64,000 nucleotides of DNA. It comes from Diospyros lotus. Lineage: Eukaryota; Streptophyta; Magnoliopsida; Ericales; Ebenaceae. The DNA lies in NCBI RefSeq assembly GCF_014633365.1, contig NC_068340.1:16719879-16783878 (forward strand). Direction: 5' to 3'. Both the position numbers and the translations under genes were made by a program. This document shows positions 30,089-30,778 of this stretch, one piece after another; position 1 is the stretch's first letter, and every line of letters starts with the position of its first letter. The notes below the pieces were generated by a model, which was given only the letters and a program-made list of their open reading frames with translations, ran no database searches and was not told where the DNA came from.

Positions 30089-30778
30089 TTACTCAGCCAT
30101 CTTAATAAAGAGCACTCCCCACAGTGATAAATTTAAATTAATCGGATCCCTTTGGCGCTTGTTACTGATTGCCTTAGACCAGTCTATCCGAGGCTCATGA
30201 GGATCGTGCTGTGGAACATAAGCGTGTAATTTCTCTAGCAGCTCATCAATGGTGGATGCGGAAATGAGAATCTTTCTTGCTGAAAGAGAAATGAACTTTT
30301 GATCCACAGCCTAATCAAGAAAAGAGAGTAACCCATCGAAAAAATGGTTAACATTTAAAAGTCCAATGGGTTTGGTATGAAGATTACTCTCAACCCAGGA
30401 GATTATACAAAAGATTTCTTCAAGTGTTCCAAAACCTCCTGGTAAAGCAATGAAGGCATCTGACTGATAAATCTTACAAGCCATGCGCTCAGACATAGAA
30501 GTCGTTTCTATAAGTTGACCACGTGTAATCCCGAAAATATGTGGTTCAGCCAAAGGGATTGGTATTACACCTACCACAGATGATTTTCCAAGATGTACAG
30601 CTTGTGAAACATAACCATTCAATCCACAACTTCCCCCTCCATATACCAAATCAATTTTTTTCTCTCCTAATTTTTGGCCTAGTTCGCTCGCTGCAAGTGC
30701 GTAACAAATATCGCTTCCAAGTTGAGAGCCACAAAGTACACATATGGTGTTGATTCAATGAACTAACTGGCCTTCCAT
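30089..30778 (-). pseudogene. captured LONELY GUY (LOG-like) cytokinin riboside 5'-monophosphate phosphoribohydrolase
   Basis: LOG enzymes release active cytokinin bases from nucleotide precursors in one step. From ATG 30778 (MEGQLVH) one frame of 230 codons, the normal LOG length, runs to the stop at 30089 with no intron and no frameshift. It has ICVLCGS near residue 12, KIDLVYGGGSCGLNGYVSQA, GVIPIPLAEPHIFG and the diagnostic SDAFIALPGGFGTLEE (PGGxGTxxE, with the catalytic Glu). The upstream catalytic Arg of the MxxR block is kept (MSERMA), but the next Lys is Met. Two in-frame stops interrupt it: TGA at codon 8 (30757-30755) and TAG at 30313-30311. The last nine residues (GVLFIKMAE) are not LOG-like. 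LOG genes usually have several introns, so this is a cDNA-type copy. It lies in the same orientation as the retrotransposon, between integrase and the 3' LTR. Confidence 0.9.

What the first reader, a model, noticed from the sequence alone, without database searches (positions are those of the whole stretch)
30089..30778. Retrotransposon carrying an intronless LOG cytokinin-activation gene in the env position
A full-length LOG-like frame (230 codons, PGGFGTLEE motif, catalytic Arg and Glu kept) lies in sense orientation between integrase and the 3' LTR of an Athila-like element with exact TSDs. The sequence shows no introns and no frameshifts, only two stop codons. gag and pol in the same element have several frame breaks each, so the LOG frame has decayed less or arrived later. 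Transduction of a cytokinin enzyme gene by a plant Ty3/gypsy element is, as far as I know, unusual. If other copies keep the frame open, the element may spread a hormone gene or use it.
Basis: partly seen in the sequence, partly recalled or inferred. Interest (0 to 1): 0.88.

Follow-up and report, generated by a model that had tools for sequence, protein, structure and literature searches.

The report
Retrotransposon carrying a cytokinin-activating gene
A decayed plant jumping gene carries a copy of the enzyme that switches on the growth hormone cytokinin, and its relatives in several plants form one family with a kept active site and an added repressor-type tail, which suggests that such jumping genes use the enzyme and did not pick it up by accident.

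Summary
The LOG frame is real. It lies on the minus strand (30778-30122), in sense between integrase and the 3' LTR of a 12.5-kb Ty3/gypsy element, Athila-like by recalled traits (26544-38999, TSD GCGGC). This copy is dead: two stops, a lost terminal stop, 11.7% LTR divergence; LOG is not visibly less decayed than pol. A LOG (YgdH) domain in Gypsy elements is in print for Citrus and Populus (PMC9289625), so the capture itself is not new.

Not seen in my searches: (1) window LOG and relatives form one clade (51 of 62 tree rows, support 100/100), with named members of five orders and Primulina gene models fused to pol; (2) active-site residues kept over 15 changes per column; (3) a C-terminal basic stretch plus EAR-type LxLxL in 41 of 49 dereplicated rows, 0 of 6 canonical LOGs; (4) a second accessory ORF before LOG, whose relatives match the carlavirus nucleic-acid-binding family (4 of 6 over Pfam's threshold); the window copy lost the finger.

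Best reading: a selected, virus-like accessory module of a retrotransposon lineage. Hormone activation is likely, co-repressor recruitment plausible; both are untested, and genomic context was seen for few relatives.

The parts
26539..26543 (.). target-site duplication GCGGC (left)
26544..28460 (-). 3' LTR of the element (1917 bp; 634 nt longer than the 5' LTR)
   Evidence: 144 differences in 1232 aligned bases, K2P 0.127
28461..30121 (-). stretch between LOG and 3' LTR, no ORF assigned; no poly(A) after LOG
30122..30778 (-). LOG frame, 219 codons; stops at codon 8 (30757-30755) and codon 156 (30313-30311); terminal stop replaced by TGG (30121-30119); C-terminal tail reads ..NLNLSL
30799..30809 (-). 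3'-splice-site-like stretch CTTCTTTCCAG, 20 nt before the LOG ATG (inference, no chance control)
   Evidence: sequence printed, read by eye
30958..31291 (-). remains of ORF A: N part 31291-31079 (frame -1), C part 31089-30958 (frame -2); the basic/Cys-finger middle present in relatives is missing here
   Evidence: E down to 8.6e-23 for the N part, 4.5e-9 for the C part
32162..32737 (-). end of integrase, ORF of 191 aa (no Pfam hit of its own; matched by Primulina P0132)
   Evidence: P0132 match 33433-32279
33077..33586 (-). integrase zinc-binding part (PF17921); integrase core match of Primulina models at 33004-32726
33647..34126 (-). RNase H (PF17919, PF17917)
34277..34987 (-). reverse transcriptase (PF00078)
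35534..35930 (-). stretch before pol, probably gag-protease junction (label inferred), matched by Primulina P0132 and Xanthoceras P0005/P0007 gene models
37694..37711 (-). primer-binding site TAGCGTCGTTGCCGGGGA, tRNA-Asp-like (comparison recalled)
37717..38999 (-). 5' LTR (1283 bp)
39000..39004 (.). target-site duplication GCGGC (right)

Best explanation
The window holds a dead copy of an Athila-like Ty3/gypsy element that belongs to a lineage with a long-kept accessory module between pol and the 3' LTR: ORF A (a basic, Cys-finger, carlavirus-CRP-like protein) followed by a retro-LOG. Shown by sequence: the LOG has no introns, sits in sense in the env position, belongs to a single clade that includes pol-fused gene models of another plant order, keeps its active site across that clade, and most clade rows carry a basic stretch plus an LxLxL (EAR-type) tail. 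Inferred: the LOG is made from a spliced subgenomic RNA; it cleaves cytokinin riboside monophosphates to active cytokinin; its tail binds TOPLESS-type co-repressors in the nucleus. Together the module would tune host cell division or silencing in the element's favour, much as plant viruses use cysteine-rich proteins.
For: Tree of 62 rows: the 51 non-canonical rows form one clade, 100/100, stem 0.72, nested among canonical LOGs, with window, Diospyros, Populus, Pterospermum, Diplodiscus, Reevesia, Rehmannia, Primulina and Xanthoceras rows; two Primulina pol-fused pieces are rows of their own and the third (P0133) was joined to P0016 at over 86% identity. Primulina gene models P0128, P0132 and P0133 hold integrase and LOG, P0128 and P0133 also RNase H. 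P0132 also holds ORF A before LOG, the order seen in the window. Xanthoceras P0005 and P0007 join LOG to a stretch that matches the element before pol. Clade tree length 15.04 changes per column, yet 26 of 216 columns are invariant and 29 more at least 95% one residue; R98 48/49, E121 47/49; R98 and E121 each 108/111 in the wider set. LxLxL in the last 8 residues of 41 of 49 rows against a mean of 0.8 in shuffled tails (maximum 6 in 1000 shuffles), 0 of 6 canonical; alignment columns L217 43/44 and L219 42/43. AlphaFold model of P0001 pLDDT 88.5, best PDB match Arabidopsis 2a33, E 1.7e-22. ORF A: 6 relatives, 4 of 6 over Pfam's gathering score for Carla_C4.
Against: The window copy itself is broken in LOG, ORF A and pol. 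Element context was seen here for the window, three Primulina and two Xanthoceras gene models only, and in print for Citrus/Populus; for the other rows it is inferred. Gene models can join neighbouring genes wrongly: itself also listed canonical LOGs fused to unrelated genes. No dN/dS. No expression data; short ENA contigs of unknown kind are not proof of transcription. 8 of 49 rows lack strict LxLxL, the Primulina-type rows and Xanthoceras among them; the rows are related, so the shuffle control does not count independent gains. The canonical tail control is small (6 proteins, 3 after joining at 86%). 8 of 120 listed proteins lack the loose PGGxGT[L/M][E/K][E/Q] pattern and 12 the strict PGGxGTxEE, for example P0003 (PRG, KE).
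Confidence: 0.7

Rival explanations
1. Neutral passenger: an Athila-like element transduced a LOG mRNA once and copies hitch-hike with no use to the element.
For: LTR elements are known to transduce genes (for example PMC13317346, passages). The window copy decays at about the neutral rate (2 stops, 1.73 expected).
Against: One clade with named members of several plant orders, catalytic columns kept over 15 changes per column and an added, position-specific LxLxL tail are hard to get without selection.
Confidence: 0.12
2. The clade is an unusual host LOG family (nuclear, EAR-tailed) that Athila-like elements captured more than once; most listed proteins are host genes.
For: Several members are annotated as ordinary LOGL10 genes (P0001, P0031, P0035, P0090). 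Context is unknown for most rows.
Against: Large clusters (P0027, 327 member sequences) and many near-identical poplar-type rows (19 joined to P0028, 24 to P0034), although member counts are not copy counts and most of those rows are unnamed. Primulina pol-LOG models fall inside the clade. The canonical LOGs in the set lack the tail.
Confidence: 0.14
3. Private processed pseudogene: a LOG cDNA landed in this one element.
For: Intronless.
Against: No poly(A), no exact flanking repeat over 8 nt; same ORF A-LOG order in Primulina P0132; 90% identical open frame in Diospyros lotus.
Confidence: 0.02
4. A variant of the best explanation, not exclusive with it: the kept function is not cytokinin activation but another nucleotide phosphoribohydrolase or scaffold role, with the EAR tail as the main effector (TOPLESS decoy or recruiter).
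For: Residues around the catalytic Arg differ from canonical LOGs: 94 D to T/S, 96 H to S/H/Q/Y, 97 Q to E/D, 99 K to L/I/M, 124 E to H/Q. Plant LOG proteins differ in product (iP or iPR; PMC11593424, passages).
Against: The core catalytic residues are kept.
Confidence: 0.25

Closest known systems
YgdH/LOG domain in Citrus and Populus Gypsy LTR retrotransposons (Alvarado-Marchena et al. 2022, PMC9289625; citing Steinbauerova et al. 2011)
   Same: LOG-family domain carried by a plant Gypsy element; most likely the same kind of thing.
   Different: In the outline, section 12 and passages I read only a domain hit in consensus sequences is reported: no clade, tail, active-site, ORF A or neighbour analysis. 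Supplements were not looked at; Steinbauerova 2011 is not held.
Phalaenopsis Gypsy elements with an AlkB-type RNA demethylase ORF (same paper, abstract)
   Same: A captured host-type enzyme as an additional ORF, active in vitro there.
   Different: Different enzyme and a single genus.
Additional ORFs of plant LTR retrotransposons between pol and 3' LTR (Vicient and Casacuberta 2020, PMC7264820, passages)
   Same: Sense ORFs between pol and 3' LTR.
   Different: LOG is an enzyme, not env-like; LOG, YgdH, cytokinin and Citrus do not occur in its main text.
Carlavirus cysteine-rich / nucleic-acid-binding proteins (PF01623, PF05515)
   Same: ORF A relatives share the basic KKRRAK stretch and a Cys motif; 4 of 6 pass the Carla_C4 gathering score. 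Both are small 3'-proximal accessory ORFs.
   Different: ORF A has an N-terminal part outside the Carla_C4 match (LPQNALKKIYKARCERLRLLM..) and, in P0137, a C-terminal part shared with the window; it lies in a retrotransposon. Its fold could not be modelled well (pLDDT 56.8).
Plant LOG enzymes (Arabidopsis 2a33 = At2g37210, 1ydh = At5g11950; called LOG3 and LOG8 from recall)
   Same: Fold and catalytic residues.
   Different: No basic plus LxLxL tail in the canonical set; introns in the host genes (recalled).

Membership tests
LTR retrotransposon, Ty3/gypsy | two LTRs with TG..CA and a 5-bp TSD | tested here: met
LTR retrotransposon, Ty3/gypsy | pol order RT, RNase H, integrase | tested here: met
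Athila lineage | RT phylogeny with reference Athila elements | not tested
   no reference set at hand; lineage call rests on recall
Athila lineage | tRNA-Asp-type primer-binding site | tested here: inconclusive
   TAGCGTCGTTGCCGGGGA after the 5' LTR; the tRNA it was compared with is recalled
LOG phosphoribohydrolase | Pfam PF03641 and TIGR00730 above cut-off | tested here: met
LOG phosphoribohydrolase | NCBIfam equivalog NF058542 above cut-off | tested here: not met
   89.3 bits against 300; a naming model made for bacteria and archaea
LOG phosphoribohydrolase | catalytic Arg, Glu and PGGxGTxxE (roles recalled) | tested here: met
   window and clade; strict PGGxGTxEE in 108 of 120 listed proteins
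LOG phosphoribohydrolase | open frame in the window copy | tested here: not met
   two stops and a lost terminal stop
LOG phosphoribohydrolase | releases cytokinin base from riboside monophosphate | not testable with these tools
   needs enzyme assay
EAR-motif proteins | LxLxL or DLNxxP motif | tested here: met
   41 of 49 dereplicated rows LxLxL; P0039 ends IDLNLTP; definition in PMC9956375 (listing, passages)
EAR-motif proteins | binding to TOPLESS-type co-repressors, repression | not testable with these tools
   needs interaction assay
Carlavirus CRP (PF01623) | family score above gathering threshold in intact ORF A relatives | tested here: met
   P0134, P0136, P0137, P0138 (4 of 6); not P0135 (17.7 of 20.9) or P0139 (15.5); P0132 14.0, not met. 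The database's precomputed column names PF01623 for 6 of 6 and for P0132
Carlavirus CRP (PF01623) | Cys finger present in the window copy | tested here: not met
   middle part absent; 0 Pfam families in the window piece
processed pseudogene of its own | poly(A) and own TSDs | tested here: not met

The most novel reading that the evidence does not exclude
A lineage of plant retrotransposons has for tens of millions of years carried a two-gene, virus-like accessory module: a CRP-type nucleic-acid-binding protein and a bifunctional nuclear effector that both activates cytokinin and recruits the TOPLESS co-repressor through an acquired EAR tail. With it the element manipulates host cell division and silencing to favour its own transmission.
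Probability: 0.33. Interest if true: 0.93.

Novelty: new variant of a known kind. Interest (0 to 1): 0.74.

Why it matters
Plant LTR elements are usually thought to need only gag and pol. A hormone-activating enzyme kept under constraint in elements of several plant orders, with a repressor-type tail that the canonical LOGs examined lack and next to a virus-like CRP ORF, would suggest that retrotransposons use hormone signalling and co-repressors against their host. It makes concrete tests possible: enzyme activity, TOPLESS binding, effect on silencing. It also warns genome annotators that some 'LOGL10' genes may be retrotransposon genes.

Tried and rejected
Other copies in the host genome: the genome search 'own' was asked and never answered, so copy number and dN/dS in the host stay untested. 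IMG/VR scans for DNA of relatives gave nothing useful: none; four distant LOG matches (35-45% identity), not followed up. tblastn found no further LOG in the window and no further ORF A beyond chance-level matches.

The claim that LOG decayed less than pol was rejected. Private processed pseudogene rejected. ORF A structure prediction was too poor to use (pLDDT 56.8), so no fold search was made with it. Of the 13 hits, P0121-P0127 (canonical LOGs fused to other sequence in Acer, Brassica, Trapa twice, Ensete, Glycine, Hevea) served as canonical rows, P0128, P0132 and P0133 as pol-fused rows, and P0129-P0131 (unnamed; Thecamonas; Planoprotostelium) were set aside.

Rows dropped. Of the 120 proteins listed, 7 were left out by length (under 195 or over 232 residues: P0005, P0007, P0008, P0017, P0058, P0079, P0083). 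The set has 126 rows: 113 of the 120, the window, seven fused canonical LOGs, three pol-fused pieces and two PDB chains; I called 15 of them canonical by eye before the tree, 111 not. The tree has 62 rows after joining rows over 86% identical. The tail counts leave out the cut Primulina pieces. In the per-position tail table the 43 of 49 rows were picked by a loose tail pattern; only the shuffled-tail control and the alignment columns L217/L219 are free of that choice. The basic stretch before the tail has no shuffle control.

Literature: ten searches (one search rejected for a sign in a term). Listings were capped: 20 of 30, 20 of 478, 1 of 1, 20 of 313, 5 of 5, 15 of 113, 15 of 15, 12 of 33, 8 of 46, 15 of 26 in that order. 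'YgdH' plus retrotransposon gave one paper. No title or abstract start tells of a carlavirus-type ORF in a retrotransposon. Of, the two papers that hold all three terms (PMC11389840, PMC7689023) were opened by passages: no EAR-tailed LOG. Steinbauerova 2011 is not held: nothing of it was read. PMC9289625: outline, section 12 and passages. PMC11963269, PMC7264820, PMC13317346, PMC11593424, PMC12172455, PMC9956375: passages only. No supplements were looked at.

Changes after re-checking: confidence in the best explanation lowered from 0.72 to 0.70 and the host-family rival raised from 0.12 to 0.14, because member counts are not copy counts and the canonical tail control is small.

Full report
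What is there. The finding's frame reads on the minus strand, 30778 to 30089. Translated with X at stops it is a LOG-family protein (PF03641, 1.6e-31; TIGR00730 145 bits over the cut-off of 96.35) and matches Arabidopsis At2g37210 (2a33) at 7.4e-54. The element lies on the minus strand: 5' LTR 37717-38999, tRNA-Asp-like primer site 37694-37711 (the tRNA comparison is recalled), a probable gag-protease stretch at 35930-35534 (label inferred), RT 34987-34277, RNase H 34126-33647, integrase 33586-32162, ORF A remains 31291-30958, LOG 30778-30122, 3' LTR 28460-26544, TSD GCGGC on both sides. The LTRs differ at 144 of 1232 aligned sites (K2P 0.127), so the insertion is old: about 5 million years at the grass rate of 1.3e-8, older at tree rates (rates recalled).

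State of this copy. The LOG frame has stops at codons 8 and 156, both at Gln in the Diospyros lotus relative, and the codon after 219, where P0001 ends, is TGG. The LTR divergence predicts 1.73 new stops in 219 codons under neutral drift. The frame was therefore most likely open at insertion and has decayed neutrally since. It is not visibly better kept than pol, in which I count 4 stops, one frame change and two unresolved breaks in 3.8 kb from the list.

Relatives. The protein search (7819 of 7999 scored candidates at E <= 0.001, 120 listed) gave P0001 of Diospyros lotus (Ericales) at 90% identity with an open frame, then proteins at 82, 86 and 76% from unnamed sources, then, among others, members from Xanthoceras, Pterospermum, Diplodiscus, Reevesia, Populus and Rehmannia (with Primulina five orders; all but Ericales and Lamiales from recall). 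Some clusters are large (P0027: 327 member sequences; a member count is not a copy count). The host of the window is thus probably a Diospyros or close kin (inference). A second search that admitted longer proteins (13 hits) gave three Primulina gene models (Lamiales) in which integrase and LOG are one model; Pfam confirmed rve plus PF03641 in 3 of 3. The same search listed seven canonical LOGs fused to other sequence, so a fused model alone is weak; what counts is that the Primulina LOG parts fall inside the clade and that P0132 runs integrase, ORF A, LOG, the order of the window. Two Xanthoceras models (P0005, P0007) join LOG to a stretch that matches the element at 35930-35808.

One clade. 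In an IQ-TREE tree of 62 rows the 51 non-canonical rows form one clade with support 100/100 and a stem of 0.72, nested within canonical plant LOGs next to Nyssa and Papaver LOGs (the exact sister is weakly supported, 88/49). The window and two pol-fused pieces are among them; the third piece (P0133) was joined to the near-identical P0016. Xanthoceras branches first. This points to one capture and long keeping, or to one host offshoot captured early. It does not by itself show that every member lies in an element.

Constraint. The tree inside the clade sums to 15.04 changes per column. Even so, 26 of 216 scored columns are invariant in 49 rows and 29 more are at least 95% one residue. They include the glycine loop, PGGxGT, R98 (48/49) and E121 (47/49). 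Under no constraint almost no column should be invariant at that depth (inference). The database holds open frames only, which biases towards frames without stops but not towards particular residues. Copies with damage exist: 8 of 120 listed proteins lack even a loose PGGxGT[L/M][E/K][E/Q] and 12 the strict PGGxGTxEE. Near the active site the clade differs from canonical LOGs at 94, 96, 97, 99 and 124, so the substrate may have shifted.

The tail. Canonical LOGs with full tails lack it (0 of 6; only 3 distinct after joining at 86%), and so do the last 40 residues of seven cut canonical pieces, some of which end in other genes. In the clade 41 of 49 dereplicated rows have LxLxL in the last eight residues against a mean of 0.8 in shuffled tails (maximum 6 in 1000 shuffles), and 46 of 49 have a basic cluster in the last 22 residues. 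The rows are related, so these are not independent gains. Typical ends are KKRKLDLTLRL and KKLRLDLSLRL; the window's is NLNLSL. P0039 ends IDLNLTP, the other EAR type; LDLNLTP is named as a C-terminal EAR motif of two zinc-finger repressors (passages of PMC9956375). Leucines at -1, -3 and -5 are nearly fixed while -2 and -4 vary (43 rows picked by a loose pattern). Eight of 49 rows lack strict LxLxL, the Primulina type and Xanthoceras among them. The AlphaFold model of P0001 is a LOG fold (pLDDT 88.5) with a low-confidence tail, as expected of a short linear motif.

ORF A. A search with the P0132 version gave 6 proteins, all from unnamed ENA contigs of 545-1309 bases. Four of 6 pass Pfam's gathering score for Carla_C4; for Viral_NABP one is above it and a second at it. 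The P0132 version itself does not pass (14.0 of 20.9). All six match the window's N part (E 0.004 to 8.6e-23) and P0137 also its C part (4.5e-9); the basic and Cys-finger middle is missing in the window. Whether these six lie in elements is not known. Viral proteins of this kind are reported as RNA-silencing suppressors, and chrysanthemum virus B p12 as a transcription factor that causes hyperplasia (passages of PMC12172455). Whether ORF A came from a virus, or the virus protein from such an element, or the likeness is only of a short basic finger, cannot be told.

How it may work. Shown: place, sense, clade, constraint, tail. Inferred: LOG is expressed from a spliced RNA (an acceptor-like CTTCTTTCCAG lies 20 nt before the ATG, no chance control); it releases active cytokinin; its tail binds TOPLESS. 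The benefit could be more divisions of the cells in which the element moves, relief from silencing, or repression of host genes. I give about 0.55 to the element using the catalytic activity, and about 0.5 to the tail being a working EAR motif.

What is known. A YgdH (LOG) domain in Gypsy consensus sequences of two Citrus species and, with a looser filter, Populus trichocarpa is in print, in line with a report of 2011 that I could not read (PMC9289625 section 12). The kind is therefore known; the single clade, the EAR-type tail, the constraint and the ORF A partner were not seen in the searches made (listings capped, two papers opened further).

Limits. No DNA of relatives, so no dN/dS; the host genome tool did not complete in ten calls; genomic context is seen for few members; lineage Athila rests on recalled traits.

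Noticed in passing
30958-31291 (-): A second accessory ORF between integrase and LOG whose intact relatives match the carlavirus nucleic-acid-binding protein family; the finger is missing here.
   Followed up: yes
26544-28460: The 3' LTR is 634 nt longer than the 5' LTR; insertion here or deletion in the 5' LTR not resolved.
   Followed up: partly
16636-19918: Imperfect palindrome of about 3.3 kb (arms about 1.6 kb, about 82% alike), with related sequence at 949-2394; looks like a foldback or nested insertion.
   Followed up: no
4536-7854 and 59172-62484: Two related stretches, 92% identical over 3.3 kb, probably other retroelements; no significant LOG or ORF A match there.
   Followed up: no
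15758-16177 (+): ORF that by eye resembles a Ty1/copia reverse transcriptase fragment; not tested.
   Followed up: no
proteins P0005, P0007, P0008: Xanthoceras gene models with two LOG units in tandem, with an element-derived peptide between them in P0005 and P0007.
   Followed up: partly
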